A stretch of 64,000 nt of DNA from NCBI GenBank assembly GCA_002104905.1, contig MCFE01000134.1, positions 62,001 to 126,000 on the forward strand, written 5' to 3'. The translations under genes were made by a program, and so were the position numbers. The notes beneath the pieces were generated by a model. It saw only the letters and a program-made list of their open reading frames with translations. It made no database searches and was not told the DNA's origin. Source of the stretch: Basidiobolus meristosporus CBS 931.73. Taxonomy: Eukaryota > Basidiobolomycota > Basidiobolomycetes > Basidiobolales > Basidiobolaceae. This document shows, one piece after another, positions 3,171 through 52,916 of the stretch (within the stretch, counting starts at the first letter, position 1; each line of letters opens with the position of its first letter).

Positions 3171-3539
3171 TGTTATGATCTGCAGCTTGAGTGGTTAATT
3201 TAGATTAGCTTTTAGTGATACCAATTAGTTATATGTTTAGCTTATCAGTAGATCATTCTTATTTATCAAATCAGTAGCATTAGTCAGCAAATGAATCAGC
3301 AGATCCTTACCAGACAGAGATTGATATCCTAAGTAGGATCTTTTTGGGTGGTGATGATTCAATCAAATAAGTGATCAGCCACAGCCTACATTAGGTAATT
3401 CAATTAGTCAGCAATTGATCTGGCAAAATGTATATAAGGAGCTGCTGGAACCTCAATAAAGATAAGTTCAAGTTTTAGTGAATACAATACTAGCTAAACT
3501 CCTTATTCCTCCACAACTCTTATACCAAGACTTGTAACA
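3171..3539 (+). repeat. LTR of gypsy family A (3' LTR of copy 1)
   Basis: It begins TGTTATGATC, ends CTTGTAACA, and is 369 bp long. A TATA-like TATATAAGG lies at 3431-3439 and an AATAAA at 3455-3460, consistent with the U3/R arrangement of an LTR promoter and polyadenylation site. Copies of the same length occur at 11464, 12177, 20167 (inverted) and 23366 (inverted). Confidence 0.93.
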
Positions 3540-4120
3540 CTATAAGCCATTGGCCAGCATATGGAATTAATTAGAAACCAGAGATACTTAAAGTAGAAGG
3601 TAGTTGTTGGAGCCAAAACTCAACACCAAGAGCAATGAATTTACTTTTCAATAATATCCTTATACTGATGACCAAGTTGTACATGGGGCATTTCAAGCTA
3701 AGTGAGCCCTTTGAGATACAGGAGAAATCTGAAAGAATTGGCAAGTTATTGCAATGTATCTGCTACCATAAGTAGTTCTCACAGGCTCCAATCAACATCC
3801 ATACACATTTGTGACAATACCAGTGCATGGACTGGGTGAACCAGATATGTACTTATTGAAGTGGCCATCTGAAGCCATTTCTACCAACAGTACATTGTAA
3901 GCATTGGAAGTCATATGTGGCCATTGCACAGGGAGTTTGTGCCAGGATTTAAGTTGCTATACTACAAGCATAAAGCTGAGTGTGTAGATCTCTGCTATTA
4001 ATGTATCCATTCTCTACTCCATCTTGCACACTGTGTGGAGAATATTAGGCCTTGCTTCACCTCTTGTATGCATCTGGTACCCAACACTCACGGCACTATC
4101 TTGATCTACTGATACTATAT
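3540..4120 (+). pseudogene. Transposon X: C-terminal part of Tnp2-like transposase (fragment)
   Basis: Nucleotide sequence is collinear with the transposase of the larger X copy at about 27560-28160, including the stretch about animal-free motifs read there as KLYIGHFKL and the later CVENI region. Here every frame is interrupted by stops and small indels. The 5' part of the gene was displaced by the gypsy insertion that ends at 3539. Non-functional. Confidence 0.7.
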
Positions 4121-4197
4121 GACACTATTCTTGAATATTAGCACTGAAGCAGAACCTGCATAATGCATATGCAGTGCCAGACAGTACAGTTCCTTCA

Positions 4198-4575
4198 CTA
4201 ACACTTGGACCAATCTTCTTGTGCTGAAATACACCTGTTACTGGTCAATGCAAAACTGAGGCATCTGTTTCTGCCTACTTGTCCCTTGCTGATACTCTCC
4301 TGGCTTGATGATACTTTTTGCAGCTTGCTTTCAACTTTCAACCCTGATAGTAACAATCTCTTGAGGGAGCTGCTGGTTTTTAGCCATAGCACTCTTATTC
4401 TTCTACCTTTGATAGTCTCTGCTATGTTTGAGAGATATTTTTGGCATATCAGTGGTTGCCAAAAATTCATTACCTTGCTTAAATCCATGATGATAAGCTG
4501 GCTGCTTGGATAGTGCTCTGAATTGCCAACCAGTTGACAGTCCTGGAGCAATCTGGTACTTGTATGTTTACTCAA
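4198..4575 (-). pseudogene. Transposon X: second-ORF fragment
   Basis: On the minus strand this 126-codon open stretch reproduces, with substitutions and frame changes, the centre of the X second ORF (the segment with SRNYQ, a KNK patch and AMAKN in other copies, for example 41100-41200). It is a fragment with no start or domain context of its own. Its orientation relative to the neighbouring transposase fragment (3540-4120) differs from that in the better-preserved X copy, so the two fragments come from separate or rearranged copies. Confidence 0.6.
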
Positions 4576-24272: not shown

Positions 24273-26428
24273 TCATTTCTGTTGAAACTTCAGATGTACC
24301 TCAATTGCCAATTGTTTTGACCTATACAAGTTCCTATACTCTACACCAACATTAAGCCCCACCCTACACTCAACAAGTATCTCCATTGAAATCCACCACT
24401 CAATAAGTATTTCTACTGTAACACTCTGGTTCCACAACTTTGGCAGGAACCCAACCAATTTATGCCACTGTGTGTTCACTAATTCCCACACATCTTAGTC
24501 TTCAGCCAGCACTGCAAGGTGTAGCACCTTATCTGCCAGTCTTTGCAATAAATCCTTACTATATTCAAGTGCTTTTTCTTGTGCATTGCTCCTGAAGAAG
24601 TGCTGTAACCACTGGGTATGCCTATTAATGTTGCAAGAATCCACTGAAAGCAATGTGATAGTCTTTCAAGTTCTTGATATTGTAGCCTTGTCTGTCAGTG
24701 TGATTGTCACTCTGTCAGCAATGGAAGATGTGGAGGTTGTAGTAGACATATTGCCTTTCTCTGCAAACTCATCTACCTTGCTAAAGTTTAGCTCAACTGC
24801 CTGCACTTCCAACTCTTGTGAAAACAGCTGTCTTCTTGTTGTTAATTCTTTGTGGCTATGATGGGATTTAGTCTGTTCCAGGCTTTTGGCATTAATTGGC
24901 AAGAATTGCATATTTTTTGTATGTTTCCCTGTCTCAGGCTTGGGTAGACATTGTTCCCTTTGTTGTAAAAGTTTGTAATTCTACCCAAATATTCACCTAG
25001 CTTAGTAACTTAGATTGTTACCTTCAAATCATAGAGAATACTGACCAAATTCCTTGTCAGGATTTACTCAGAATATTTTCACCAGAATACCAGGTACCCA
25101 GAACATGAAAATTCCCAAAGTTGTCCAAACAGCCCCAAACTTTGCACACATGTTCTGGGACCTGTATTAACCAATTCTATGTGTTTGTTATGCCAAGACC
25201 ATGTAAAAGTATAAATACTACTTTGACATTCAATAAATCATCAAGTGAAAACCTCATAATCTACTTGTCCTCACAATCACTTCCAATATCTCCAAGACTC
25301 TCACAATACCCTTTACCTTTTTTATCACTGCCAAGTCTTTCACTGCTACTTTTACTCAGTGCTTCTTGTAATGAGCTACTATTTGTCTTTTGTAAATTCT
25401 GCCCTGATGCATCTGTTTTTACCTGCTTGTCCCTTGCAGGCACTCCTCTGGCAACTTAGCATTTCTTTGCCAATTGTTTTGAGCTCTAAGCCATAGTTGT
25501 GATGGGATCTTAAGAAAGCCACTGGTTCTTATCACTGCCAGTTCCTTCATTGCTACTTTGATTGAGAGCTTGTTTGGTAGTACTACTCTTTTTCTTTGAT
25601 AAAAGTGGAGCTGGTGCATCCATGTCCACCTCCTTGTCCCTTTTTGGCACTCTTCCAGCTAGCTGACGTCTTGTTGATGCTTGTTTGGAGCTTTTGGCCC
25701 AGCTTGTAATGGGCTCTTTAGGAAGCTGTTTGTTTTTAGCCATGGCACCCTTGTTCTTCTGCCTTTGATAGTTTCTGCTATACTTAGGATACTTTCTTAT
25801 CATTGAAATGCTGGCCCAAAATCTGCTTGCCTGTTGGAATCTGGGATGATGCTCACGGAACAAGTCAAGCACATTCTGATTGGCCTTGAGCTCCTAGTGG
25901 GCCCATGGTATGCTGGCCTTAAGGCAATGGAGTGGTAGACTTCTGATGGTGTCTTGAATATTAGCCCACTCCTCATTATTGCACTTGACTGCTTCATAGA
26001 TCTTCAATATCTTTTGATTTTTAGGCTTTGGTATAGACACCACATTGTCTCCCTCCTATGCTGTGATTGGTTTTTCTGTGCACTTTATTTTTGGGCACTG
26101 TTGTTGTGCTTCAAGATTTTACTGTGTCCCTCTGCTGTTACATTGGGAAATAGCTCAATTCTTGGATGTGACATTGAGATACTGAGTTCCTTCTTTGCAG
26201 CAAAAATACTGCTTTCTCTACATGGGATATTGATTGCTCTACACACATTATCCACTCATCCGGTTTCTGGACTGTTTCTTGATTTTGCTGGGCCATTGCA
26301 GCTACCCTATCAGTCACTGCACCTAATTGATTCATCAATGCTCTGGTAAGAGCTGTCAACACACTTGCTAATATGGGTGGTGGTGTTGTTATGATGGTCA
26401 CTTGCTGGTCTCCAGCGGAAGGTACCAC
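24273..26428 (-). pseudogene. Transposon X second ORF (unknown function), broken copy
   Basis: Minus-strand pieces follow each other in the order seen in the forward copy at 40321-43377. First is an N-terminal part with a predicted coiled-coil segment (QQNQETVQK, CVEQSISHVEKAV, near 26200-26400), then a central segment (MLDLFREHHP, KYSRNYQRQKNKGAMAK, near 25700-25870). A low-complexity region follows with repeated lysine/serine units (LSKKKSSTT, SSNEGTGSDK, near 25540-25640), and the end is a W-rich C-terminal part (NTQWHKLVGF, LIEWWISMEI, near 24380-24500). At least four frameshifts or stops separate them. I recognise no known domain. It lies divergent to the transposase and has moved with it in every good copy, so it is probably an element-encoded accessory protein. 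Confidence 0.7.
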
Positions 26429-26469
26429 ATTTGCTACACTCTCATCTGCCTGCCCATAATGGTCAGGTT

Positions 26470-28700
26470 GCAGAGTGATAGCTGGGCCAAAGAAGGCTCA
26501 CTAATGATTGTGAGCCTATCTCCCCTAACAAAAGTACCCTGCATGAGCCTGGTCAAATCCCAATATGCAATGAGACAGCACTAATTGAAACAAATGCCAA
26601 TGGTGTCAAGTATACACAGTAATCCATCTACAGGTGAATGATGTAATGTTGTGGCTAGAGAAGTGGTGTGTTTCCACTAATATCAGTAATGGGGGCTTTG
26701 AGGATTTACTATTACTTCTTGCAAAATCATGCTGGGATGCAACTTATCATAAACATGGTATAAGTGGACAACCATCATGCAGCTGGCAACATATGACCCA
26801 TGGACTGTCCTAATTCCTGCATGTGTTAACATTTGCATGGCATTCACATCCAAAAATGTCACCTTTGCAACATGTTCAAATTGTTGAGAATCTACCACCA
26901 TTGAGGGATAACATTGTTCACACCCTGGATATATTTTGGTAATACCCCATCTAAAAAAGCTCATGCAATCCAACCAGTAATGCAATGCTGCTAAATACTG
27001 CACTTAGAATTAATCAAGCTCAAACATATCATATATATTTGATGGCAAACATTAAAAACAGCTAAGAAGCAAGAGCTACTTTGAAGGAACATATGCCCAT
27101 GCCTTTGCTTTATCAATTGATGGATTCTCATTAAATCTGTGTTCTACCAGCAAATCCTGCTGGCCACTGAATCTCATCAATCTAAATCTGCTGCTTATCT
27201 TACAGTATCAAAGCAAAAATCTGATGGTAGCTCACAGGTATCTGAGCCTAAAGCACTGTGCAACCTGGATACCTGAATCCATTGCTGAATGAATTTTGTA
27301 TGCTTTCCATCAGGATAACAGTGAATGGCCATCATGTCAGAGTGCATATTATAGTTTACATTGGAGACACCCCAGCCATTGGCAAGAAAGGTGGCTTTTC
27401 TGGGCACAATGGATGGTATTGCTGTCAAATCTGTAAGATTCAGGAAATTTACCCCATAACTCACAAACATCATTATTACCAAGACACCAACTCTGAGAAC
27501 ATCATCTTCCCACAGAGAGAATATACAGAAGTCAGTATGCAATTGCAGCAAATTTGGCAGGATATAAGTCATTGGTCATAATATGGATTCAATTGGAAAC
27601 CAGTGATACCTAAGATAGAGGGTATCTGTTGGAGCAAAAGCTTTCCACTGGGAGCAATGTAGTTGCTTTTCAGCAATATCCCTATACTGATGACTAAGTT
27701 GTACATTGGGCATTTCAAGCTAAATGCACCCTTTGAGATACCAGAGAAATTTGAAAGAACTGGCAAGATATTACATAGTATACACTACCCTAAGTACTTC
27801 TCATGGGCTCCAATCAATATTCATACGCATATATGACAATACAAATGTAATGACAAGATGAGCTGGATATTTATTTAGTCAAGTGGCATCCTGAAGCCAT
27901 TCCTACCAAGAGTACCTTGGAAGTATTGGGAGTCATATGTGGATATTGTAGCAATGTTATCTATAAGTGGATCACCAATGCCAACTTGACACATCTACAG
28001 CTGTTGTGCAAGGAGTTTGTAATGGGATTTGAGCAGCTATACTACAAGCATAAAGCTAAACGCATTAATCTCTGCTACTGTTGTATCAATTCTATTATCC
28101 ATCTTACTTGGTGTGTGGAGAATATCAGGCCTGGCTTCATATTTTGGGAGTATCATATGGAGCAGATGTGTGGGGAGATAGGAAGGCTAGTCAAGTCTCA
28201 GGTACTACCATATCTCAATCTCCTTAAGAATATTACCTTAAGTCCATGATAGATGTGATGAGTTGGTGTATGGAGGACAGCCACAATGAATTGTAAGATA
28301 CTGAAGACAGATGTGCACATGGAGACACCAATGCCTATGGAATTATGAAGCTAAGCAGTCCTAATGCATGAGTAATCAGTTAAGTAATGCAAAGTTGGGT
28401 TGGGTACAACAAGTAACTAATATATATTAGGAAAGCTCTACCAAAGTATGCAAGAATTCTCCTGGTCACAAGCCATCTTCTTCACCATTCAATACAGAAT
28501 TCACACAAACAAGAGCCAGAGCACACCTATAGGGGCGACTAGAGTTCAGCAGGAAGAAGGAATATATTGGCTAAATACCAAAATGTTCTTTGCAGATATT
28601 CTGGAGGCACTCATGGCAGTAGTAGCAGCAACCAATCATATGTTTGCAAGATGTATATGTTACCAGCAGTACAAGGTAACTGGCAACTTCTCAAGTATCA
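26470..28700 (+). pseudogene. Tnp2-type transposase of transposon X, broken copy
   Basis: Plus-strand translation, across several frames, shows features of fungal Tnp2 transposases. An N-terminal segment (VNDVMLWLEKW, about 26630) is followed by a degraded cysteine region (CPNSC, about 26810). The core reads GDTPAIGKKGGFSGHNGW with a following CCQIC (27360-27435), then LYIGHFKL (about 27700). A C-terminal part has LQLLCKEFV, CVENIRPGF, FWEYHMEQMCGEIGR and KSQVLPYLNLL (27985-28240). The family catalyses cut-and-paste movement through DDE chemistry; the acidic triad cannot be assigned safely in this damaged copy. The zinc-finger N-terminus seen in the copies at 39900, 44640 and 48820 is missing here. 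Confidence 0.78.
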
Positions 28701-29165
28701 CACAATAAGCCACAAAGCTGAGGTGACAGCAGTAAGTCAACTGCAGCAGGTGTGTGCGTGTGTAGAGGCTAGTAAGCATGAGACCATCTTATTTTTTGAT
28801 TCATACCATATGTAGAATACCCAATGTAGTAGTAGGTCAGCAAATAAAGAAGGGTGATTCTACAGTGAATACATGAATAGCACAAGGGGAGGTAGAAAAA
28901 GGAAATAACATTTGGTCAATTGGTATGGTAGCATGATATTATGATGGTTTTCACATGGCACCCTGATAGCTGATCTGGATTGTATCCACCTGCAGGACCA
29001 AATTATTTTTCATGGGGTCATAGTGCCAGATGGTACTAGCGGACCAAGATAGTGCCATGCATTTTTGGGACTTGTTGCAACCTGCAGGAGCTATATTCAG
29101 AGCACTATGCAAATGGAGCACCAGATAAATATCTACAGTCCTTCTCTGCTCATGCACATCCTGCA
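28701..29165. other. Subterminal region of transposon X
   Basis: Lies between the transposase remnants and the right inverted repeat. A minus-strand open stretch at 28951-29166 is short and has no recognised homology. No gene is called. Confidence 0.4.
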
Positions 29166-32704: not shown

Positions 32705-32708
32705 TTTC

Positions 32709-33363
32709 CATGACTGTGGCAGGATCCAAATGGCTTTGTGCTATTGTTTATTCACTGGTTCCTGTATGTCTTGGTCTTTGGCTAGCATTGCAAGGTCTTG
32801 CACCTCACCTGCTAGCATTTGCAATAAATCCTTGCTACACTCAAGTGCATCCTCTTAAGCCCTGCTCTTGAAGAAGTGTTGCAACCTTTTGCTTTGCCTG
32901 TTAATACTCAGAATTCCACTTCTGGCATGACCATAGTCTTGTAAGCCCTTTGGCATTGTTTCCTTATCTTTCAGTGCAATATTCACTCTGTATATGATGA
33001 AGGACATAGAGGCTGTGGTAGGTATCTAGCCATTCTCTGAAAGCTCATTTACCTCACTGTAGGATAGCTCCACTGGCTGTGCTCCCAACTACCATGGAAT
33101 TACTTTTGTCTAGTTGGTAATTCTTCTTGGCTACAATGAGATTTAGCCTGTTCTGAGCTTAAGGCATTAATTGGGAAAAACTGCTGCTTTGCCTCATGCT
33201 TCCCTGTCTCTGGCTGGGGCAGACATTTCTCCTCTTATCTTTTCCTTTATCACTCTGAGGTTGTTCACTGCTACTTTGTCTGAGTACTCTTGTGTTGGCT
33301 CTACTTTCTTCTTGATTTATGCCGCACAAATGTATATGTTTCCACCTTGTTACTTACCAGCTC
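32709..33363 (-). pseudogene. Transposon X second ORF, C-terminal half (continuation of 19214-20099)
   Basis: In reverse it matches 24440-25350 and the forward copy 42660-43210, with the segments around AKDQDI and QQNLFK lost to stops. It is the part of the host X copy that lies beyond gypsy copy 2. It is cut again at 33363 by the family C element. Confidence 0.72.
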
Positions 33364-34434
33364 TGTAGTGGGGTGACAGTGACACCCACTGACAGATGTG
33401 CTCATTCCCTTATTTTCTACTTCCCTATATCCCTACTACACTCATTTTAGTTTTATCCCATTTGTCTTACCCTATCAGTACTATCCCATAAGCCGGTTGA
33501 CTATCACACCTGCTTACCTTATTGCATAAGTTACCCCTCACTTTATGTAAGATTACTAGTTACAAGTGCCTCTATATTAGGCAAGTACTAGCGCCAGTAC
33601 CCGTGACACATGATCAACCCGTGTCACCATCCCTACCATTTCCATACCATATAAGGTATCCCCATGTTACACAGGTTTCAGAATACTGATTCCTGATTGG
33701 TTGGATGTGCTGTGCCTCTTAGAACCTTCCGGCACCTACTTAGAACATTCTTAGGTCATTCTGATGTCATTAAGATTTCTATTGATATCCGGAACCTTCT
33801 GGAACACCATGATTAGTAATCACTTAGCCAGTAAGAAAAGTATATAAGGGAGGCTATCCCTCAACAATAAATCATCATCCCTTTTATCAATATACCAACT
33901 TGTTGATTAGTGTGATCACTGCTACCTGCTGCTACCTGAACTTCCAACCCTAGACCACAGGACACTCCCAGGAAACCACGCTGACAGCCAACTGACCTTG
34001 GAGGCACTACTTGTGAGGAATACTCAGAGTAGGTATCTTTTATTATATTTGATTCTTTCCCAAGTTTGTTCTTGTACAGGCAAAGATACTTTTCTGTCTT
34101 TGTAGCTATTGACCAAAGCTGCATTCTTATCAAGTCCCTGCTGGTGGAGTTTACAGTTGTTTTGACTTTGGAAGCTTTAGTACATTGTCATCTCAAAGGA
34201 CGCTGAACCCAGCACATACTTTTGTTAAGACGCCAACTAAGTTGGGGATTGTAGCTCAATAGTTTTCCCTTGACAAGCTTGTGGCTTTATTCCCCTTCAC
34301 ATTAGATTAGAGACAGAACCCAAGTATTCCTAGCAAGCTTTTGCCAGAGGTTATTGCACCCAGTGAACACCCCACACACAAAACACTTGAGAAGTGTTGG
34401 ACGTATCTCTCCCCTGGACTTATACACCACCACA
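33364..34434 (+). repeat. 5' LTR of the family C element (long form)
   Basis: TGTAGTGGGG to ACCACCACA, 1071 bp. A TATA-like AGTATATAAGGG lies near 33838 and AATAAATCA near 33866. The inverted solo copy at 38310-39376 is 1067 bp and closely similar. Confidence 0.92.
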
Positions 34435-34438
34435 TATT

Positions 34439-34455
34439 TGGCACCCAACGTGGGG
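34439..34455 (+). promoter_or_regulatory. Primer-binding site, tRNA-Lys type
   Basis: TGGCACCCAACGTGGGG, four bases after the LTR. It matches the well-known Lys1,2-type retroviral primer site except for one base, and so probably pairs with the 3' end of a fungal tRNA-Lys. It is not itself a tRNA gene. Confidence 0.8.
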
Positions 34456-37590: not shown

Positions 37591-38309
37591 CTTTCAAAGG
37601 TGCTAGTGGTGGAAGCACTTCAATTGGGTCATCATCAGTCAGTTCACCAGAAGAAATTTGCTGGTGGCCTGGTGTAATGGCACATGCAGGTACAACTTGA
37701 TGTGCTGGCATGATCCTTGGCTAAGCTTGATGCAATGCTGCTTGTTGACGCAACTTGGCCTGCTCCAAGGGACTTGTGACTAAGTGAGCAGTTTGGCAAG
37801 TTCTGGTGGTTTTGCTCTGAAGCACACGTGTTGACTCAACACTTATTGACTCAGTGTGGGGTGCTCTTGTGAGGGGTGTTGGCGTAGTTAGATGGGTGGC
37901 AGATTCAGATTGATGAGAATCACTGGCCAGCAGGATTTGCTGGTAGAGTACTTGTTTAATGAGAATCCATCAAGTGCCAAAGCAAAGGCATGGTCATACA
38001 TACCTTCAAAGTAGCACTTGCTTCATAGCTGTTTGTAATGTTTGCCATCAAATATGTCAGATATGTTTGCGCTTGATTGATACTGAGTGCAGTACTGTAT
38101 AGCTTTGCAATTTTTGTTGGACTGCATCAGCTTCCTCAGAAAGGGTATGACTGGAATATATATGGACTGTGAACAATGTTTTTCCTCAATTGTGGTGGAT
38201 TCCTACAATTTGGACATGTTGCAATGGTAGCATTTTTAGATCTGAATGCCATGCAACTGCTAACACAAGCTGGAATCAGGACAGTCTCTGGATCATATGT
38301 TGCCAGCAG
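37591..38309 (-). pseudogene. Transposase of X copy 3, middle region
   Basis: In reverse, 37880-38309 matches 26780-27190, a cysteine-containing region in which each homologue keeps CPNC-type residues (ATCPNCRNPP here). 37591-37880 reads as a polar, proline-rich stretch with no partner in the 22588 copy. Interrupted by stops. Confidence 0.6.
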
Positions 38310-39376
38310 TGTGGTGGTGTATAGGTCCAAGGGAGAGATACATCCACCACTTCTCAAGTGTTTTGTGTGTGGGGTGTTTACTGGGTGCAATAACCTCTGG
38401 CAAAAGCTTGCTAGGAATACTTGGGTTCTGTCTCTAATCTAATGTGAAGGGGAATAAAGCCACAAGCTTGTCAAGGGAAAACTATTGAGCTACAATCCCC
38501 AACTTAGTTGGTGTCTTAACAAAAGTATGTGCTGGGCTCAGCCTCCTTTGAGATGACAATGTACCAAAGCTTCCAAAGTCAAAACTGTAAACTCCACCAG
38601 CAGGGACTTGATAAGAATGCAGCTGTGGTCAATAGTTACAAAGACAGAAAAGTATCTTTGCCTGTACAAGAACAAACTTGGGAAAGAATCAAATATAATA
38701 AAAGATACCTACTCTGAGTATTCCTCACAAGTAGTGCCTCCAAGGTCAGTTGGCTGTCAGCGCGGTTTCCTGGGAGTGTCCTGTGGTCTGGGGCTGGAAG
38801 TTCAGGTAGCAGCCGGTAGCAGTGATCACACTAATCAACAAGTTGGGATATTGATAAAAGGGATGATAATTTATTGTTGAGGGATAGCCTCCCTTTTATA
38901 CTTTTCTACTAGCTAAGTGATTATCAATCATGGTGTTCCAGAAGGTTCCAGATATCAATAAAAATCTTAATGACATCATGATGACCTAAGAATGCTCTAA
39001 GTATGTGCCTGAAGGTTTTAAGAGGCACAGCACATCCAAACAATCAGGAATCAGTATTCTGGAACCTGTGTAACATAGGGATACCATATATGGTATGAAA
39101 ATGGTAGGGAAGGTGACACAGGTTGACCATGTGTCATGGGTACTGGCGCAGGTACTTGCCTAATATAGAAGTACTTATAGCTAGTAATCTTACATAAAGT
39201 GAGGGGTAACTTATGCAATAAGGTAAGCAGGTGTGATAGCCAACCAGCTTATGGGATAGTACTGATCAGGTAAGACAAATGGAATAAAACTAAAATAAGT
39301 GTAGTAGAGATAAAGGGAAGTAGAAAATATGGGAATGAGTACATCTGTCAGTGGGTGTCACTGTCACCCCACTACA
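38310..39376 (-). repeat. Solo LTR, family C (long form), inserted in the X transposase
   Basis: Plus strand TGTGGTGGTG to CCCCACTACA, 1067 bp. Flanks GCAG (38306-38309) and GCAG (39377-39380). Joining the flanks restores the X reading seen at 44060-44100 (TTGCCAGC then GGTTGTCCA). Confidence 0.94.
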
Positions 39377-39990
39377 GCAGCATGATGGTTGTCCACTTGT
39401 ACCATGTACATGGTAAGTTGCATCCTGGTATGATTTTGGCAAGAGGTAGTAGTGAATCCTCAAAGCCCCCATTACCAATATTAGTAGAAATGTGCCACTT
39501 TTCTAGCCACAACATTACATCATTCACCAGTTGATGGATTACTGGGCTCATTTGGCTCCATAAAGTATCCTTGGTATTTGTTTCAACAGGTGTTGTCTCA
39601 TTGCATACAGGGATTTGACTGGGCTCATACATGGTACTGTTGTTAGGAGAGATAGGCTCAAAATTTATCAGTGAACCTTCTTTGTCAGAGCTATCACTCT
39701 GTGTGCCATATTCAGAAGGCTGAGGTGAGCCTAAAGGCATCACAAACTCACCTGACTCAGTTTGGGCAAGGTGACAAAGACAGCCAGGTGCCAATATAGA
39801 AGTATCAACTGGCCAGCAAGATAATGTTGGTACAGTAGTGACCAATGTATGGTTAAATATGACTTGGGTGGCAAAACACTAGCCATGATCCTTGTAATAC
39901 TTCCTATGCTGTCTGCATGCTTCATGACTGAGAGGCTTGCCACAATAGCCACATAGTCTTTTTTCTCTTCTCTTACAGTGTTAAGTCAAA
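39377..39990 (-). pseudogene. Transposase of X copy 3, N-terminal zinc region
   Basis: An open minus-strand stretch of 157 codons (39845-39372) carries the conserved DVMLWLEKWHIS and GNGGFEDSLLPLAK motifs. Upstream, in a neighbouring frame, lies CGYCGKPLSHEACRQHRKYY (about 39955-39895), a cysteine/histidine cluster also present at 44640 (CGYCNKSLSCNAHRLHRKYC) and 48830 (CRYCSKLLSHG). Such a cluster probably binds DNA at the transposon ends. One frameshift and a stop separate the two parts here. Confidence 0.7.
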
Positions 39991-40320
39991 GTAGTCTTGT
40001 CCATGGGGCAAAGAGCTTGACCTTCCACAATGTAACACTGTTATATCACTTTTTGGTCAATGCTCATGTGAACGTAAGACAGCCTTGTATTTGAGACATT
40101 GCACCTACATGAATGTAAGATTCAATGATGACCAACCATAGTAAGCATTATAAATAAAGTTGCGGCACTACATACACATGTATATGTAACACTACTTCCC
40201 CTTTGGTTTGACTCACTTCCATATATATGCCACAAAAAAACAAAGCAAAGTTGTCTGGTTCTCAACCAAACCCCCTGCTGATGGCAACAGAAGAATGGTT
40301 TGACAACAGCTTGCTTTGAC
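39991..40320. promoter_or_regulatory. Divergent spacer between the two genes of transposon X
   Basis: Conserved with 44670-44985 (shared AAGATTCAAT, CATTATAAATA, CTCACTTCCATATATATGCC). It contains TATA-like stretches facing both ways (about 40150 and 40212). It probably holds promoters for the transposase (minus) and second ORF (plus). Confidence 0.5.
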
Positions 40321-41229
40321 ATTCAGTGCAACAAGCAGGGCTACATCCAAAAAAGGCCCTGTGGACAGTGTGCCCATTGAAGGTAATAATGCAGACTCCT
40401 GAGGCTCTCAGTCAAGTAGGTGATTGAGAACCACTGCAGAGCCACAAGCTGACTGTTATACCCAGGCAGATGAGAATGCAGCAAACACAGTACCCTCAGT
40501 TGAAGATCAGCAAGTGGCCATGATAACATCACCACCACCCATATTATCAAGTATGTTGTCAGCTCATACCAGAGCACTAATGAAGCAATTAGGTGCAGTG
40601 GCTGATAGCATAGATGCAATGGCCCAGAGAAATCAGGATGTAGTCCAGAAGCAGGATGAGCAGATAATATGTGTAGAGCAATCAATATCCCAGGTAGAGA
40701 AAGCAGTACCTTTGCTGTAAAGAAGGAGCTCAAGAAGCTTAATGTTGCAGCCAAGAATTGAGCCATTTCCCGATGTAATAGCAGAGGAACACCGTACAGT
40801 TTTTGAAGCACAACATCAATGCCCAAAGATAAAGCCCACAGAAAAACCTATCATTGTGTGGGAGGGAGACAATGTGGTGTTTATACCAAAGCCTAAAAAT
40901 CAAAAGACATTGAATATCCATGAATCTGTTGAGTGCTATAATGAAGAGTGGGCCAATATACAAGGGGCCATCAGAAGTCTAGCACGCCATCACCTTAAGG
41001 CTGGCATACCATAAGATCATCAGGAACTCAAGGCCAAGCAGAATGTACTTGACTTGTTCCATGAGCATTATCCTGGATTCAAATGGGCAAACAGACTTGA
41101 GGCCAGTATTGCTATGCTAAGAAAGTATCTTACAAATAGCAGAAACTATCAAGGGCAGAAGAACAAGAGTGCCATGGCTAAAAACCAGCAGCTTCCTCAA
41201 GAGCCTGTTACAAGCAGGGCCAGAAGCTC

Positions 41230-42325
41230 TGTTGTGTTGTATTATGATTAGATTGGGGCTTGTTCTACAATGTAGAGGCTAATCAACAATATACAACAAC
41301 TTCCAGTATGCTAATACTGAAATAGTCTATTGGGAGTTTGATATACCAATAGAAGATATAACTTTCACTAATTTCCTCAATCTTAGGCTCAAAATATACT
41401 CTAGACAGTGTTTATCACTTCTACAGCAGTGTTCTGACCTTCTGTCAACTAATGGGCTTATTTAATATTATAATAACTTTTCCTTATTTGAAAGTCACTT
41501 TCCTTTTTGAGAAAATATTTTGTAATATTGAAATTCAGAACTCCCCTTTAACCTAAAGGGGGGTGTTGTAGAAGTCTCTAAAGGGGGCTTTAGACCTAAA
41601 GGGGTGTCTAAAGGGGTGTCTTTAGAGTAAAGGGGTTTCTTAGAGGGGACTTTTCCAACAGAAAAGTGGTAGCTTCTTGTAGAACTTAGATTGGATTCTT
41701 GTGAGCTTTGCAGTCTCTTTACTGATGTAGTACCAAACAAAGTCAGAATACTCAACAGTGCAAGTGATGCAAGGGAGGTCTTATAATCTTTAAGCTTGTA
41801 ATTGTAGTGTGGAGATTCTGGAAAGAGAGGCTCTCCCTTTATTTTTCAGCTGGGGAAGTCATATATAAGAAAATTTTGAAGGATAAAGGTTTTTGGGCTA
41901 TTGCCCAAGCAATACATGCAACACAATGCTAAAATCTTGCAGTGGCGCAGATCAAACATAGGAACAGCACCTGTGAAGATTTCACGTGATTTGATTGGCT
42001 AGTTCCAAAGTTACACACAATCAAAGTTACCATAGTAATCCTAGCAATAAGGCATAGTATATATAATAATTGGACTCTTTTGGTCATAACTCCTTAAGTA
42101 CTGCTTCAATTGAGCTGTAATTTAAAACATGTGTTGGCTACTACGTGTTCTGTATGACATAATATTCTTGGGTGGATTGCTTGTCAGGGTCAGGAGCATT
42201 TGTTCTTCAAAGTTGGAAATTCTTGATCTTTCACTTGGGTGTTACAACAGCAAAAGCAAAATAAAGAAATGAGTGCAATATTGGTTTAGAGATATTGTTG
42301 TAATGGAATACTTTCCATTACTACA
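41230..42325 (+). repeat. Solo LTR, family B, inserted in the X second ORF
   Basis: TGTTGTGTTG to CATTACTACA, 1096 bp. Flanks GCTC and GCTC (41226-41229, 42326-42329); other X copies show the empty site AGCTCCAAAC. It contains a G-rich array at 41558-41648. Confidence 0.93.
41558..41648 (+). repeat. G-tract array within LTR B
   Basis: Six runs of four to six G lie within 91 bp (41558, 41583, 41601, 41613, 41632, 41645), carried on a degenerate TAAAGGGGTGTCT unit. The array could form a G-quadruplex on the plus strand. It is much shorter in the other LTR B copy (complement near 30950-31010). Confidence 0.75.
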
Positions 42326-43377
42326 GCTCCAGACCAGTGTCAAAAAGATGTCAGGCAGCTGGATGAGTGCAAATTAGGGACAAGCAGGCAGACATGGATG
42401 CACCAGCACAACATTTATCAAAGAAAAAGCGTAGTACCACTCAAGAAGCACCCAGTCAAAGTAGCAGTGAAGGAGCTGGCAGTGATAAAAACCAGCCAGT
42501 TTTGCAGGAGCCTGTCACAACTATGGTTCAGAGCTCAAAACAAGCTGAAAAAAAACGTCAGGTTTCCAGAAGTGTGCCAGCAAGGGACAAGCTGGCCAGA
42601 ACAGATGCGTCTGAGCAGAATTTATCCAGGAGAAAATGTAGTGCTGTACAAGAAGCACTCAGAAAAAGTAGCAATGAAAGAACTGGAAGTAATAAAGGAA
42701 AAGGTTAAGGGAAAAATGTCTACCCAAGCCTGAGACAGGCAGGCATGCAAAAAAAACTGAAGTTCTTGCCAAATAACGCTGCAAGCCCAGAACAGACTGA
42801 ATCTCATCATAGCCAAGAAGAATTACCAACAAGAAAACAGCTTTTTTCACAAGAGTTGGAAGTGCAGCCAGTTGAGCTACAATCCAGCAAGGTAGATGAG
42901 TTTGCTGAAAAAGGCAACTTGTCTACCACAGCATCCATAGCCTCCATTGTTGACAGGGTGGAGATCCCACTGATAGACAAGGCTACAATGTCAAGAGCTC
43001 AAAAGACTATCACAATGCCTTCAGTGGAGTTTTGGAACATTAATAAGCACACAAAGAGGTTGCAGCACTTCTTCAAGAGCAGTGCTCAAGAAAACGCACT
43101 GGAATATTGCAAGGATTTATTGCAAAGACTGGCAGATGAGGAGCAAGACCTTGCAGTGCTGGTTGAAGACCAGGACATGTGGGAACCAGTGAATGAACAG
43201 TGGCATAAAGCTGTTGGGTTCCCACTAAAGTTGTGGAACCAGAGCATTACAGCAGAGATACTTATTGGGTGGTGGCTTTCAATGGAGTCACTCATTGAGT
43301 GTGAGGTTGGGCTTAATGTTGGTGTAGGGTATAGAGATTGTATAGGTCAATACAATTGGCAATTGAGGTACAATTGA

Positions 43378-43921
43378 AGTTTCAATGGAAATAAATAAAT
43401 TTGTATGCATGGAAAGTAAGAGAAACGGTTTAGTCAAGAAGTAAGGAGTGTGAAAAAGAGGCAATGGCCAATCAATTCACACAAACATAGGAGGCAATAG
43501 AGTGTCTGGGATCAGAAAGTGAGCTAATTGGCTGTGAACCAATCAAAAGCCACTTATACATTGTTGTGATGAAAAATTTTGTCAAAGTTTTTTGTGAAAT
43601 CTGGGGTGCAATTATTTTTCAACAATCTCTGGACAGTGTCCTGACAAGATCAGTACCTCTTAGTCATGGGACATTAACTTTGTGATGGCCTTTTGACAGG
43701 ATCATCTCAATATTTCTTCATAGGGATTGATCCCAAAAAGAAGGTCAAAAAATGGATTTTCTCCAGTACAATGGGTGAAACACAGGGGCTACTTTGACTC
43801 TGGATGTGGAGTTGTTTTTCACATTGTGTGGCAGAGTATAGGTCTACTATGCCTCTCTGGCACTTTAGGGCTAAATTTAGCACTCACAGCTCAACATGGC
43901 ACTATCTAATGGAATTAGTCT
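43378..43921 (+). repeat. Subterminal region and right terminal repeat of X copy 3
   Basis: 43378-43721 has no gene and matches 46960-47290 and, in reverse, 24030-24270. 43722-43921 is the terminal repeat (GATCCCAAAAAGAAGG, CACAGGGGCTACTT), ending TAGTCT. Confidence 0.75.
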
Positions 43922-44670
43922 TATATGCAGAGTGGGAACTATGTTTTCCTCCTATGGTGGAGCATTACTAACAAGTTGAACACCTTGCAGTGGTAGAATT
44001 CTCTGACATGAATGCTATGTAGCTTTTAACACATGGTGGTATCAGGATGGTCTCTGGATTATATGTTGCCAGCTGTATTAAGGTTGTCCATTTGTACTAT
44101 GTGCATGATAAGTTACATCCAGCAACAATTTTGGAAAGAAGTATTAGTATACCCTCAAAGCCCCCATTACTGAAATTTGTGGAAACAGGCCACTTCTCTA
44201 GCCCCAACAAAACATCATTCACCAGTATATGGATTACTGGGCATATAAGGTTCCAAAAAGTATCCATGACATTTTTTATAGGTGTTGTCTTATAGCAGAT
44301 TAGCATTTTGGTGGACTCATACAGGGTATTGTTGTTAGTGGAGATAGGCTCTCAATCCATCAGTTAGCCTTTGACTTTAGAGCAATCACTCTGCATGCCA
44401 TATTCAGAAGGCTGAGGTGAGCCTATAGGTATCACAAACTCACCTGACTTAGTTTTCACAAGGTCACAAGTACGGCTAGGTGCTGTGATAGAAGTATTAA
44501 GTTACCAGAAAGATATTGTTGAAAAAATAGTGACTGATTAATGGTAGAATATGAATTGTGTGGCAAAACACTTTCTGTGATTCTTGCAATACTTTCTATG
44601 CAGTCTGTGTGCATTACAACTGAGAGACTTGTTACAATAGCCACAAGGTCTTTTTCCACTTCTCTTATTG
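43922..44670 (-). pseudogene. Transposase N-terminal region, X copy 4
   Basis: From right to left: the cysteine/histidine cluster CGYCNKSLSCNAHRLHRKYC (about 44650-44590), a polar linker ending EPIS-like, the VNDVLLGLEKWPVSTNFSNG motif (about 44215-44160), then SYIAFMSENS and a cysteine pair (about 44020-43970). It ends at the junction with copy 3. Interrupted by stops. Confidence 0.68.
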
Positions 44671-44984
44671 CTTTGAATCAATGTAGCCTTCTCCATGCAA
44701 CAAACAGCTTGACACTCAACAATATAATGCTACTATTTCACTTTTTGTTAATACTTGTGTTTAACTTAAAACAGTCTTGTATTCATGACATTGCACCGGC
44801 ATGAATGTAAGATTCAATAGTAACCCACCATAGTAAGTATTATAAATAGTGTTGTGGCACCACATACACACATATAAGTAGCACTATTTCCCCTTTAGTT
44901 TGACTCACTTCCATATATATGCCACCAAAAAATACAGCAAAGCCATCTGGTTCCCACCCAAGCCCCACTGTTGACAGCAACAGA

Positions 44985-46970
44985 TGAACAGTTGGACAGC
45001 AGCTTGCTTTGACATTCAGTGCAACACACAGGGATACTTCAAAAAAAGGCCATGTTGCAAGTGTTTGCACTGAAGGTAATAGTGCAGACTCTCCAGGCTC
45101 TCAGTCAAGTAGGCAAATGAGCATCTCTGTGGAGATGCAAGCTGGCAGTAATGCTCAGACAGATGAGAATGCAGCAAACTTGGTGCCTTTGGCTGCAGAC
45201 CAGCAAGTGACCATCAATAAATTGTCACTGCCCATACTATCACTTATGTTGTTTACTCATACTGAATCACCAATGGCCAATAGGTTAGATGTAATTACCC
45301 AGAGAAATCAGGAAATAGTCCAGAAACAGGATGAGCAGTTAATACAAGTAGAGCAATCAATATCCCAGGTGAGAATGCAGTACCATTGCTGGAGGAAGGA
45401 ACTCAAGTAGCTCAATATCACAGTTGAGAATTGGGACATCTCCCAATGTTACAGCAGAGGAACACCATATAGTTGTTGAAGCATAACAATAGTGCCCAAA
45501 GATAAAGCCCATAGAAAAACCTATGACAGCATGGGAGTGAGAGACTGTTAAGTTTACGCATATGACTCAAAATCAAAAGACATTAAAGATATGTGACACC
45601 ATTGAGTGCAATGATAACAGAAGGGCTGATATTCAAGAGGCTGTTTGAAGTCTAGCACAGCATCATCTTAAGGCTGGCATACCATTGGACCATAAGGGAC
45701 TCAAGGCCAAGCAGAATGTGCTTGACCTGTTCCATCAGCATTATCCTGGATTCAAGCAAGCAAACAGATTTTGGTTCAGCATTGGAATGTCAAGAAAGTA
45801 TTTCAAGAATAGCAGAAATTATCAATGGCAGAAGAACAAGGGTGCCATGGCTAAATACTAGCATCCTCCTCAAGTGCTTGTCAGAAACAGGGTTGATAGC
45901 TCCAAACAAGTGGCAAAAAAAGCTTAGGTAGTCAGAAGAGTGCTAGTCAGGGACAGGCAGGAAGAAACTAGTGCATTAGCGCAGCATTCATCAAGGAGAA
46001 AACATGGTTCAAAATAAGAAGTACTCGGTCACAGTAGCAGTGAAGGACTTGAAAGTTATAAATACCCATGGCTTTCACAGGATCCTGCCACAAGCAGGGC
46101 TGGAAGTTCCAAACAAGCAGCAAAGATGCATTAGGTTGCCAGTAGAGAGCTGGCAAGGGACAGGCAGGCAAGAATCAATGCACCTGTGCAGCACTCATCA
46201 AGGAGAAAACAGAGTACTATACAAGAAGTACTCAGTCAAAGTAGCAGTGAAAGACTTGGCTGTGATAAAGTTCAAGATAGAGCAAAAAAGGTCTGCTCAA
46301 GCCAGATACAGGGAAGCATCTGAAAAAAGCTGCAGTTCTTATCAACTTATACCATTGGCCCAGATCAGGCTGAATCCCATCATAGCAAAGAAGAATTACC
46401 AACTAGAAAGCAACCACTTTCTTAAGAGGTGGACATGCAGCCAGTTGAGCTATACTCTTGTGAGGTAGATGAGTTTGTAGAGAAAAGCAACTTGTCTGCC
46501 ACTGCCCCCATGTTTACATTGTAGACAGAGTGGAGATCCCACTGACAGACAAATCAACAATGCCAAGAACTAAGACAACTGCAATGTGTACACTGGCATT
46601 TTGAAATATAAATAGGCACACCAAGAGGTTGCAGCACTTCTACAAGAGCAGTGCTCAGCAAAATGCACTTACATATTGCAAGGATTTATTGCAAAGACTG
46701 GCAGATAAGGTTCTAGACCTTGCAGGGCTGGCTGAAGACCAGGACTAATGGGAGCCAGTGAATGAACAGCGGCATAAAGCTGCAGGGTTCCTGCAGAAGT
46801 CATGGACAAAGGGTGTTACAGCAGAAGTACATATTGTACGGTGGATTTTAATGAAGTAGCATCTTGAGTGTTGGGTTGGGTTTAATGTAAGTGTTGGATA
46901 TAGGGACTTGTATAGGTCAATGCAATTGGCAATTGAGCTGCAACTGAAGCTTCAATGGAAATAAATCAAT
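44985..46970 (+). pseudogene. Second ORF of transposon X, copy 4
   Basis: An open N-terminal stretch, 45009-45410, includes SGSQSSRQMS and coiled-coil-like QRNQEIVQKQDEQ. The centre follows at 45590-45860 (HHLKAGIPLDHKGL, KNSRNYQWQKNKGAMAK), the lysine/serine units at 45950-46280, and the C-terminal part at 46480-46960 (NEQRHKAAGF). It is more damaged than copy 3, with about ten frame breaks. It preserves the same order and so supports the gene model. Confidence 0.7.
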
Positions 46971-47294
46971 TTGTTTGCATGAAAAGTACAAGAATTGGTA
47001 GAGTCAGGAAGTAAGGAATGTGAAAAAGAGGCAATAGCTAATCAGTGTATACAAATGTAGGAAGTGATTGATTGTCTGGGATCAGAAAGTGAGAGAATTG
47101 GCAGAGGACCAATCACAAGTCACATATGTATTGCTGTGGTGACAAATTTTGTCCAAGTTTTTTATGAAATCTATGGTGCAATTATTTCTCAATGGACTTT
47201 GCACAGTATCCTGAGAGGATTGATACCTCTTGGTCATGAGAATTTAGTTTTGTGACAGCCTTTTAATGGGATCATCCCAATTATATCTCACAGG

Positions 47295-47640
47295 GAGTGT
47301 GATTTGCATTTATTTCCATTCACACTCAAGAAACATATTCTAATACTTTATTTACCAACCATAATAGTGGTATCCAATTGTACACATGTTGCAAACATTG
47401 TAACTTGGCACAATCATCCATGCTAACCTCATTGTGTCAGTTTGTGCAGTAGTGTGCAAGATTGTCTCACATAATGCAAAATCTGACTACATTGATTCTA
47501 TCCACTGGTGGCTACAACATTATGCCCAATTGTTCTAAGCAACTGCAGATTGTGCCACATACACTGGAATGGTACAATGGAGCAAGTCTTTTGAGTACTA
47601 AATGCATGTCTTCTGTCTTTCTGTGCTTTCATTCAGCATA
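47295..47640 (+). repeat. Repeat Y inserted in the X subterminal region
   Basis: Copy 3 of X is continuous at the corresponding place (about 43720), while here about 340 bp intervene, starting AGTGTGATTTGCATTTATTTCC. The inverted partner is at about 36630-36906. No coding potential and no clear terminal repeat. Possibly a short non-autonomous element. Confidence 0.62.
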
Positions 47641-47844
47641 TGCAACATTGATCCCAAAGAAATGGTTAAAAAAAATGTGTTTTCTCCTGCATAATAGGTG
47701 AAATATAGAGGCTGCTTTGCATGAAGATGTAGAATATGATTTTGCATTGTGTAGCCAAATATAGGTCTGCTATGCCTCTTTGATACACTATAGTGCTATT
47801 TGGTACTTATAGCTTAATGTGTCACTTTACATTGGAACAGGTCT
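47640..47844 (+). repeat. Right terminal repeat of X copy 4
   Basis: GATCCCAAAG start, GCTTTGCATGAAGATG in the middle, ends GGAACAGGTCT, the same terminus as at 29362. Confidence 0.78.
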
Positions 47845-49370
47845 AATTTCAAACTTGGTAGAATTGCCCAAGTTTTAAATTAAAGGATCTTGCATGTCTT
47901 TGGATATTTGGGCTTTGGCATTTATTATGGAGTGTCTCCCTCCCATGCTTTGATAAATCTTTTAGTGGGCTTTATCTCTGGGCACTGTTGTTGTGGTTCA
48001 ATGGTAATTTGGTGTGCCTATGCTGCTAAATTGGGAGATGGCTCATTTCTGGTCTGTGCATTGCAATGCTTGAGCTCCTCCTATGCAGGAAAGATACTGC
48101 ATTCTCTACCTGGGATATTGATTGCACTACCTGCCTGATCCATGCATCCTGACTCCGGAATAATTCCTGGTTTCTGTGGGCTATTACTTCTGTGCATTTA
48201 GCCAACACACCTAATTGCCTCATCAATGCACTTATATCAGCTGAGCATAGACTTGACCACAGTGTAATGTTATTATGGTGGTCATGTGCTGTTCTTCCAC
48301 AAGAGATACTGTGCTTGCCACATTCTCATCTACCTGTGCATTGTGGGCAGTTTGCAATTCCAGCAAGGTTCTCAATTGCCTTCTTTTCTAAGAGCCTGAG
48401 GAGTTTATATTACTACCTTCAGTAGGCACATTGTCCAACATGATCTTTTTGGGATTTAACCCCACTTGTTGCACTCATTATTAAAGCAAGCTGTTTTCCT
48501 ACTGTTCTTCTGTAGCTGTCTGTAGCTAGACTTAGCTGGGTTACAGACATCTTTGATTTACCTATTGATGGTAGTTATGTGGAAGTGAATCAACTCAAGG
48601 GATATAATGTTAAATGTAAATGTATGTGATGCCACATCTTTATCTATATTGCTTAATGTAGTGGATAGCACTTAATCTTTCATTTGTGCAGGTGTAATGT
48701 CTCAAATATAACACTTTCCTAGACTCAGATGAATATTGACAAAAAGTGATACAATAGCATATGATGTACAATATCAAGCTGTTTGTCTTGTGGACAAGAG
48801 TGAATTGATTCTACACTGTAAGTGAAGAGAAAAAGACCATGTAGATATTGTAGCAAGCTTCTGAGCCATGGGGAACCCTGACAGCATAGGAGGTATTACA
48901 ACAATCATGGCCAGTGTTTTGCCACACAGATCATATTTGAGCATTGAACATTCACATCTGTACCTGCAATGTCTTACTGGCAACTTTATACTTCTGTAAC
49001 AGCACCTAGCCTCACTTGCCACCTTACTCTAACTGAGTCATGTGGGCTAGAGATGACTTTTTGCTTATCTCAGTCTTTGAAATTTAGCCTGTGTAGTGAT
49101 ATCTCTGACAATCAAGGCTCAATGATCAAATCAACCTTACCCTGTACATGATGCAAATGAGCAACTGTTATACAGCTAGCAACATATGACCCAGAGATTA
49201 CCCTGGTACCAGCATATGTTAATAGTTGCATGGCATTCATGTCAAAAACTGGCACCATTGCAAGGTGTCCAACTTGTCAGGAATCCTTTACCACAGGAGG
49301 AAACCATTGCTCACATTCTAGATAGACTCCAGTAATATTCCATCTAAGGAAGCTTGTTCAGTCTTGCCTT
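47845..49370. mobile_element. Transposon X, copy 5 (central part only)
   Basis: Second ORF N-terminal part on the minus strand (about 47880-48430, with AHRNQELFRSQ and VVQSISQVENAV), spacer (48431-48810), and transposase N-terminus on the plus strand (about 48815-49370: CRYCSKLLSHG, then RRYYNNHGQCFATQ, SYWQLYTSV, and CMAFMSKTGTIARCPTC near 49230-49290). Orientation is opposite to copies 3 and 4. No terminal repeat seen on the right. Confidence 0.72.
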
Positions 49371-52834: not shown

Positions 52835-52916
52835 ACTCTCCTTCGGTGCTCTAACCCTTCTTCGCGCCGCTCTCTGAAGCTCCACTCTGGTTGTTTGGGA
52901 CCCTTCGTCATATCCG

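What the first reader, a model, noticed from the sequence alone, without database searches (positions are those of the whole stretch)
37591..47844. Two-gene Tnp2 transposon with a divergent, unassigned second protein
At least five copies of family X are in this window. Wherever both parts survive, a Tnp2-like transposase with an N-terminal Cys/His cluster is paired head to head with a second ORF. That ORF has a coiled-coil-like N-terminal part, a conserved centre, a set of about 60-residue Lys/Ser repeats and a Trp-rich C-terminal part. I know no named family with this layout. Plant CACTA elements encode an accessory DNA-binding protein beside the transposase, so an analogous factor that evolved separately is a reasonable hypothesis. 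This is the best candidate for an undescribed system in the block.
Basis: partly seen in the sequence, partly recalled or inferred. Interest (0 to 1): 0.75.

Follow-up and report, generated by a model that had tools for sequence, protein, structure and literature searches.

The report
Two-gene fungal CACTA-like DNA transposon
A very abundant cut-and-paste DNA transposon, in what looks like a fungal genome, carries its transposase back to back with a second, selectively maintained protein that matched no known family in the searches made; it is most likely a helper for transposition, as in plant CACTA elements.

Summary
The window (in an unnamed 89 Mb genome) contains four head-to-head Tnp2/ORF2 copies plus fragments. 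Elsewhere in the genome, 27 of the 30 best-scoring ORF2 loci have the transposase N-terminus diverging from ORF2, 21 of them 222-224 nt start to start. Copies with both ends are 5.5-6.0 kb, have ~17-bp inverted repeats (CCCTATGAAAAATAATT) and 3-bp duplications in 2 of 3 independent insertions. The transposase is CMC/CACTA-type. ORF2 is at least 647 aa, with no meaningful Pfam, NCBIfam, PDB or protein-database match. It evolved under purifying selection: N/S 3.4 in private against 1.3 in shared variants, p=1e-8 with CpG-type sites excluded, other forward frames not significant; the transposase behaves likewise. Pairing persists in a subfamily whose ORF2 is 34% identical. So ORF2 is an old second gene of the element, not a chance neighbour. 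The concept is known: plant CACTA elements need a second DNA-binding protein, and Schistosoma TRC1 was proposed to have one. New here are the divergent arrangement and this unassigned protein. Its role in DNA binding, complex assembly or anti-silencing is inferred, not shown; extreme CpG loss in the TE block keeps anti-silencing alive as a rival.

The parts
39354..40004 (-). Copy A, transposase N-terminal part incl. Cys/His cluster region (query residues 1-217, 3 stops)
   Evidence: tblastn 85% identity
38346..39353 (.). Stretch interrupting the transposase of copy A, part of a region (38301-39377) inverted relative to 33363-34443
   Evidence: inverted repeats I5, I14, I17 at 92-97%; Tpase alignment breaks here
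37891..38345 (-). Copy A, transposase continuation (query residues 194-348); no further transposase match on this side
   Evidence: tblastn 60-88%
40005..40225 (.). Copy A, ~222-nt stretch between the divergent starts (candidate bidirectional promoter, inferred)
   Evidence: spacing; 222-224 nt start to start in 21 of 27 paired genomic loci
40226..41230 (+). Copy A, ORF2 residues 1-335 (N-terminal part, coil-like stretch, linker, conserved centre; 5 stops)
   Evidence: tblastn 82% from residue 4; conserved centre
41231..42324 (.). Copy A, insertion splitting ORF2 (41222-41586 is a 92% inverted copy of 30969-31333; 42069-42329 an 87% inverted copy of 29671-29931)
   Evidence: ORF2 alignment break; repeats I7, I23
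42325..43374 (+). Copy A, ORF2 residues 334 to near the C-terminus: Lys/Ser repeats, linker, Trp-rich C-terminal part
   Evidence: tblastn 86% to 43266, 2 stops; 222-aa open frame 42709-43374
43709..43725 (.). Copy A, right terminal inverted repeat (degenerate)
   Evidence: within 4 mismatches of CCCTATGAAAAATAATT; right-end alignment 92% to L070
43923..44696 (-). Copy B, transposase N-terminal part (59% to reference, 7 stops)
44919..46835 (+). Copy B, ORF2 (57-74% to reference), starts 223 nt from the divergent transposase start
47279..47295 (.). Copy B, right terminal inverted repeat (degenerate)
   Evidence: right-end alignment 78% over 330 nt
24402..26482 (-). Copy C, ORF2 (63-71% to reference; N-terminal 69 residues not matched)
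26506..28380 (+). Copy C, transposase (residues before 114 not matched; pieces 63-83% identical; broken by stops)
29001..29017 (.). Copy C, terminal inverted repeat on the transposase side
48032..48574 (-). Copy F, ORF2 N-terminal part of a distant subfamily (34% identical)
48825..49364 (+). Copy F, transposase (45-64% identical), head to head with its ORF2
32708..33287 (-). ORF2 C-terminal fragment with no transposase match beside it
3539..4495 (.). Scrambled fragments: transposase (+) 3539-4061, ORF2 (-) 4298-4495, convergent

Best explanation
Family X is a CMC (CACTA/EnSpm-like) cut-and-paste DNA transposon of about 5.5-6 kb with short CCC-starting TIRs and 3-bp target duplications. It encodes two proteins diverging from a ~222-bp spacer: a DDE Tnp2 transposase with an N-terminal Cys/His cluster, and ORF2, an accessory protein of roughly 690 residues. 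Shown: the anatomy, the pairing, the ends, the duplications and purifying selection on both genes. Inferred: the spacer is a shared promoter; ORF2 self-associates through its coil-like segment, enters the nucleus through its basic Lys/Ser repeats, binds the element ends through its aromatic, basic centre, and contacts the transposase, perhaps through the Trp-rich C-terminal part. It would thus work like TNPA with TNPD in Spm/En, without detectable relationship.
For: Pfam Transposase_21 in the transposase at 1.5e-17; D, D, C(2)C, H(3)H and E residues in the alignment with P0001. TIRs and 3-bp duplications AGG and ATA; the joined flanks of L069 restore the frame of an interrupted, related Tnp2 gene around the site, one residue differing from the reference there, when exactly 3 bases are dropped. 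Divergent pairing in 27 of 30 ORF2 loci, 21 at 222-224 nt. Same layout with 223 nt in subfamily B, and head to head in C and F, with ORF2 and Tpase diverging together. Selection on ORF2: N/S 3.41 (private) vs 1.33 (shared by 3 or more copies), p=1e-8, other forward frames p=0.087 and 0.23; Tpase N part 2.92 vs 1.17, p=0.0027; C part 2.82 vs 1.00, p=0.0069 (CpG and TpG/CpA transitions excluded). The centre (residues 236-315) is among the best conserved segments between subfamilies (67/80, 56/80, 61/80 identical) and residues 256-315 hold 3 W and 6 F/Y; the Lys/Ser part is 20% K+R. Precedents: TNPA/TNPD in plants and proposed SmTRC-PrA (passages).
Against: No domain, fold or homologue supports DNA binding: Pfam, NCBIfam, PDB and protein-database searches were empty or chance-level. 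The AlphaFold model of the C-terminal part is useless (mean pLDDT 39). Subterminal repeat arrays as in plants were not found: shared 8-9-mers between the ends reach only p=0.02-0.07. ORF2 residues 1-100 show no constraint (N/S 2.46 private, 2.90 shared). The selection test has soft spots: without excluding CpG-type sites the +1 frame also differs (p=0.017); with only transversions ORF2 is not significant (p=0.086); 17 shared ORF2 variants are stops, so some sharing arose after inactivation.
Confidence: 0.55

Rival explanations
1. ORF2 is an anti-silencing factor: it binds the element's own DNA and removes or blocks CpG methylation or heterochromatin, without being needed for cutting (as described for VANC of Arabidopsis VANDAL elements; compare TNPA on Spm and TET/JBP in fungal transposons).
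For: The TE block is extremely CpG-poor (observed/expected 0.04-0.13 in window 1-36000, 0.07 in the finding, against 0.80-0.82 in neighbouring non-TE genes). Over 59 ORF2 copies, C before G is T in at least 40% of copies in 35 of 40 columns, against 16 of 447 columns for C before other bases, as expected from strong CpG methylation. Fast divergence fits an arms race: ORF2 is 34% identical where Tpase is 45-64% in copy F.
Against: No dioxygenase, glycosylase or other recognisable domain. Heavy CpG decay shows that most copies were not protected in the long run. CpG decay does not separate this role from a general helper role; the two may coexist in one protein, as for TNPA (passage). No methylation data were available.
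Confidence: 0.22
2. ORF2 is a repressor or copy-number regulator of the transposase (self-limitation), acting on the spacer between the two genes.
For: Near-constant ~222-nt spacer between the two genes (21 of 27 paired loci); basic, possibly DNA-binding composition.
Against: The family gives thousands of first-look candidates (1145, 4134 and 2000), and selection on ORF2 is about as strong as on the transposase, which a purely self-limiting gene would not readily show.
Confidence: 0.12
3. ORF2 is a passively captured host gene or an adjacent unrelated repeat, without a function in the element.
For: No recognisable transposon domain.
Against: Lies between the TIRs in the four copies with both ends seen, L069, L070, L071 and L074; near-constant spacing and orientation across subfamilies; purifying selection.
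Confidence: 0.04

Closest known systems
SmTRC1 / TRC elements (CACTA superfamily of animals and fungi, PMC1636069)
   Same: Transposase_21 domain, TIRs beginning CCC, a second protein proposed to act like TNPA with no similarity elsewhere (passages read).
   Different: SmTRC1 makes its second proteins by alternative splicing, one as a tandem ORF on the same transcript, and shows 2-bp duplications; here ORF2 is a separate divergent gene and the duplication is 3 bp.
Plant En/Spm and other CACTA elements (TNPD + TNPA; passages of PMC2613891 and PMC1636069)
   Same: Two element proteins, Tnp2 transposase, 3-bp duplication (reported for soybean Tgmt), non-conserved accessory protein.
   Different: CACTA ends and subterminal repeats in plants; accessory made from the same transcription unit; ORF2 matched no Pfam family meaningfully.
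Fungal EnSpm, Plavaka and ESTA families with TET/JBP genes (PMC12730594, passages)
   Same: CMC-type transposase with C(2)C and H(3-4)H; an extra protein, possibly against silencing.
   Different: ORF2 has no TET/JBP or other known domain; ends are CCC..GGG rather than the CA..TG usual there; nothing like ORF2 is mentioned in the passages read.
Arabidopsis VANDAL/VANC (PMC10398659, PMC5735166; starts of abstracts in the search listing only)
   Same: A transposon-encoded second protein that counters silencing is the rival model.
   Different: VANDALs are Mutator-like (recalled); no sequence relationship was tested.

Membership tests
CMC / CACTA-EnSpm superfamily | Transposase_21 (Tnp2) domain | tested here: met
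   PF02992 E=1.5e-17 in L071, 3.3e-13 in L069; 150 scored genomic hits listed, over the cut-off
CMC / CACTA-EnSpm superfamily | DDE with C(2)C and H(3-4)H between second D and E | tested here: met
   read by eye in alignment A3: DG, GDTPA, CCQMC, HSLLH, FPME; motif definition from a passage of PMC12730594
CMC / CACTA-EnSpm superfamily | short (2-5 bp) target duplication | tested here: met
   AGG for L069/L070 (one event, shared flanks) and ATA for L071; not seen in L074: 2 of 3 independent insertions with both ends seen
CACTA proper | TIR beginning CACTA (or CA..TG ends) | tested here: not met
   ends are CCCTATGAAAAATAATT
TRC group (SmTRC1-like) | TIR core CCC | tested here: met
TRC group (SmTRC1-like) | 2-bp target duplication | tested here: not met
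   3 bp, fixed by the in-frame empty site of one insertion and by ATA/ATA in another
TRC group (SmTRC1-like) | transposase phylogenetically within the animal/fungal TRC clade | not tested
   no tree built; five protein-database relatives were found, best 51%
TNPA-type CACTA accessory protein | made from the same transcription unit as the transposase | tested here: not met
   opposite strands, starts ~222 nt apart; transcripts themselves not available
TNPA-type CACTA accessory protein | binding to repeated subterminal motifs | tested here: inconclusive
   only weak shared 8-9-mers (p 0.02-0.07); one TIR-like core ~110 nt inside the right end, present with one base changed in copies B and C; binding not testable
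TNPA-type CACTA accessory protein | sequence similarity to known accessory families | tested here: not met
   no Pfam or NCBIfam family at a meaningful E-value, best 0.38
Captured host gene | single-copy homologue elsewhere in the host, absent from most element copies | tested here: inconclusive
   present in most sampled copies; a single-copy host homologue could not be sought because only the 150 best candidates are scored

The most novel reading that the evidence does not exclude
ORF2 founds a previously undescribed family of transposon-encoded accessory proteins of independent origin, combining target-end recognition with protection of the element against CpG methylation in a fungus-like lineage, paired with its transposase through a conserved bidirectional promoter over a long divergence of subfamilies.
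Probability: 0.15. Interest if true: 0.6.

Novelty: new variant of a known kind. Interest (0 to 1): 0.42.

Why it matters
CMC transposons need more than a transposase in plants, yet outside plants the second protein is poorly known; for Schistosoma it was proposed. A high-copy element in an apparently fungal genome, with a clearly separate, selected second gene, gives a clean system for asking what the second protein does (end binding, complex assembly or anti-silencing) and whether such helpers arose more than once. It also shows a genome whose TE block has lost nearly all CpG.

Tried and rejected
Rejected: chance adjacency; host gene captured once and then inert; a TET/JBP gene or other known accessory domain. 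Weak matches taken as chance: PDB PRKR-interacting protein 1 E=0.064, AhpD E=0.022, GCN2 E=0.93; Pfam YecR 0.38 and SKA2 0.66.

Led nowhere: two protein-database searches with ORF2, single and profile, gave no hit. That search needs shared exact words and seems to hold few fungal proteins (the transposase control found five relatives), so the silence is weak evidence of absence. Viral-contig scans with P0001 and with the ORF2 profile found no relative. AlphaFold on the window's 222-residue C-terminal piece alone gave pLDDT 39 and was not used. Loci from the genome tools were not handed to the folding tool, because its rule names other sources. Tandem Repeats Finder listed one short 9-nt array in ORF2 and not the 207-nt repeats. 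Pairwise dN/dS (ORF2 0.44-0.87 except one short piece at 1.74; Tpase 0.44-0.89; self-comparisons left out) is confounded by neutral decay and transition bias, so the private/shared test replaced it. In that test, other frames sometimes approach or reach p<0.05 under weaker filters (ORF2 +1 frame 0.017 unfiltered; Tpase N part +2 frame 0.032 with transversions only, on 5 shared variants). The first non-CpG control was asymmetric (only columns with C in the majority) and was redone without that condition. A search with copy F's ORF2 piece gave no hit above 55% identity besides itself among 150 scored. The organism was not identified; an early-diverging fungus such as Basidiobolus was a guess from genome size and was not tested. 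Literature searches (open-licence PubMed Central only) gave listings, from which I read passages of eight papers; none seen describes a fungal CMC element with such a divergent second gene. Repbase could not be searched.
Full report
What is there. The window is G000:C352:62001-126000 of an unnamed 89.0 Mb genome in 1311 contigs. Natural genomic copies were used as tblastn queries: ORF2 from L072, transposase from L069 and L071. They find four Tpase/ORF2 pairs in the window, head to head: A (Tpase 37891-40004 minus, ORF2 40226-43374 plus), B (43923-44696 minus, 44919-46835 plus), C (ORF2 24402-26482 minus, Tpase 26506-28380 plus) and F (ORF2 48032-48574 minus, Tpase 48825-49364 plus). There are also fragments at 3539-4495, 19215-19432 and 32708-33287. 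The 3.5-4.5 kb fragments are convergent, the one adjacent pair that breaks the rule. All four pairs carry stops, and A is also interrupted twice by other sequence. The finding's span 37591-47844 covers copies A and B.

Genome-wide anatomy. First-look candidate numbers are 1145 (Tnp2 Pfam domain), 4134 (ORF2 C-terminal piece) and 2000 (ORF2 N-terminal piece); the best 150 of each are scored, so true copy numbers are not known. Of the 30 best ORF2 N-terminal loci (window copy A among them; a sample biased to well-preserved copies), 27 have at least 200 bp of transposase on the opposite strand upstream. In 21 of the 27 the two starts are 222-224 nt apart; the other six are at 230-345 nt or, once, 1081 nt. 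L062 has 189 bp at 223 nt, and L050 and L061 have none. Of 8 transposase loci, 6 have ORF2; the other two (L005, L008) lack the transposase N-terminus. Comparing copies gives element ends common to L069, L070, L071 and L074, with the TIR CCCTATGAAAAATAATT on the left and, in L070, CCCTATGAAAAATTATT on the right. L069, L070 and L071 are 5.5-6.0 kb; L074 carries an insertion. L069 and L070 are one insertion event (shared flanks) inside a related Tnp2 gene. Dropping exactly three bases (AGG) at the junction restores that gene's frame (TNISNRGFEDLLLL against TNISNGGFEDLLLL), so the duplication is 3 bp. L071 has ATA on both sides; L074 has no match.

Transposase. L071's 543-residue frame matches PF02992 at 1.5e-17 and DUF1258 at 2.7e-8. 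Its best database relative, P0001, is 51% identical over the full query; the one named hit is a Rhizoctonia solani tnp2 protein. The D, D, C(2)C, H(3)H and E positions are present by eye (motif definition from a passage of PMC12730594). The N-terminal Cys/His cluster (CxxC...H..C...H...C) is complete in L069, L070 and L072 and has lost a Cys in L071, L073 and L076.

ORF2. In L072 it is open for 647 residues from its ATG to the contig end; other copies end soon after that point, mostly at ...VQLKFQ(R/Q)K. L072 shows a Ser/Thr-rich start, coil-like stretches around residues 118-145 and 147-174 (crude heptad score of my own, which also scores stretches near 225 and 288), a centre rich in Trp/Phe/Tyr and basic residues, a Lys/Ser part with 20% Lys+Arg, and 4 Trp in the last 87 residues. 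The Lys/Ser part holds two ~69-residue repeats. Between subfamilies the centre keeps 67/80, 56/80 and 61/80 identities and the C-terminal part 65/85, 62/87 and 64/87. The Lys/Ser part keeps 83/145, 99/144 and 67/145 (L075, copies C and B). Pfam, NCBIfam, PDB profiles and two protein-database searches give nothing above chance.

Selection. 62 independent genomic stretches gave 59 usable ORF2 rows and 40 rows for each transposase half. Matches under 74% identity, rows of 60 codons or fewer and sites with fewer than 12 rows were left out; copies B, C and F were not entered. Variants seen once (mostly after insertion) were compared with variants in three or more copies (mostly from the active lineage). 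CpG and TpG/CpA transitions were excluded because CpG sites mutate recurrently. ORF2: private 992 N: 291 S, shared 112: 84 (3.41 vs 1.33, p=1e-8). The same sites read in the other two forward frames give p=0.087 and 0.23. Transposase N half: 2.92 vs 1.17 (p=0.0027); C half: 2.82 vs 1.00 (p=0.0069). Unfiltered, ORF2 gives p=5e-8 in frame, and 0.017 and 0.14 in the others; with transversions alone 4.55 vs 2.50, p=0.086. Variants seen twice lie between (ORF2 2.32). Stops occur among shared ORF2 variants too (17), so part of the sharing is later than inactivation, which dilutes the test. By region (shared meaning two or more copies), the fall is strongest in the C-terminal part (3.61 to 1.23) and the preceding linker (3.92 to 1.45), and absent in residues 1-100 (2.46 to 2.90). 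Fisher's test treats sites as independent. So ORF2 was maintained while the element was active, about as strongly as the transposase.

Age of the partnership. Copy B (ORF2 57-74%, Tpase 59% identical to the references) keeps a 223-nt spacing. Copy F (ORF2 34% over its main match, Tpase 45-64%) is still head to head. ORF2 therefore diverges faster than the transposase in F, but alongside it.

How it most likely works. A two-component system: the DDE enzyme cuts and joins, and ORF2 is the helper that recognises the ends and assembles the complex. In plant Spm/En both TNPD and TNPA are required, and TNPA recognises subterminal repeats (passage of PMC2613891). In Schistosoma SmTRC1, PrA was proposed to do the same and had no detectable relatives (passages of PMC1636069). 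Non-homologous helpers are thus expected in this superfamily. The steps from 'conserved second gene' to 'DNA-binding helper' are inference from composition and analogy. Against it, the ends show no subterminal repeat arrays (shared 9-mers p=0.02-0.06), although one TIR-like core lies about 110 nt inside the right end and recurs with one base changed in copies B and C.

Rival worth keeping. CpG observed/expected is 0.04-0.13 across window 1-36000 and 0.07 in the finding, against 0.80-0.82 in the non-TE genes at 52.9-64 kb. Over 59 ORF2 copies, C before G reads T in at least 40% of copies in 35 of 40 columns, against 16 of 447 columns for C before other bases. This points to long-term CpG methylation of these elements, so an anti-silencing role (as for VANC; starts of abstracts seen in the listing) is plausible and not exclusive of the helper role.

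Compared with the known. It is a member of the CMC superfamily by domain, catalytic motifs and target duplication. It is not a canonical CACTA element by its ends (CCC, not CACTA). It resembles the TRC group by CCC ends but not by the 2-bp duplication reported there. The divergent two-gene arrangement and the protein itself did not appear in the listings or passages I saw; Repbase could not be checked. I rate it a new variant of a known kind, of moderate interest.

Noticed in passing
window 1-36000 and 37591-47844 versus 52878-63998: CpG observed/expected 0.04-0.13 (0.07 in the finding) against 0.80-0.82 in non-TE genes, with raised TpG and CpA: CpG-specific decay as expected from cytosine methylation.
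   Followed up: partly
L069 1477-1767 and 7251-8900 (and the same flanks in L070): A family X element sits inside a related but divergent (about 73-77%) Tnp2 element, and L069 and L070 share flanks at about 95%, so the nest was duplicated as a block.
   Followed up: partly
window 3539-4495: A transposase fragment (+) followed by an ORF2 fragment (-), convergent rather than head to head; probably scrambled copies.
   Followed up: no
window 52878-63998: Long open frames without apparent introns: a sulfatase (58293-60008, PF00884 E=2.9e-53) and four others (two with likely membrane segments by eye, one of 1180 residues and acidic) without a Pfam match at E 0.01.
   Followed up: no
L070 6854-7183 against the right ends of copies B and C and of L075: The non-coding ~330 nt after ORF2 is 78-88% conserved between subfamilies over the parts that align (330, 249 and 154 nt), which suggests a functional 3' region.
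   Followed up: no
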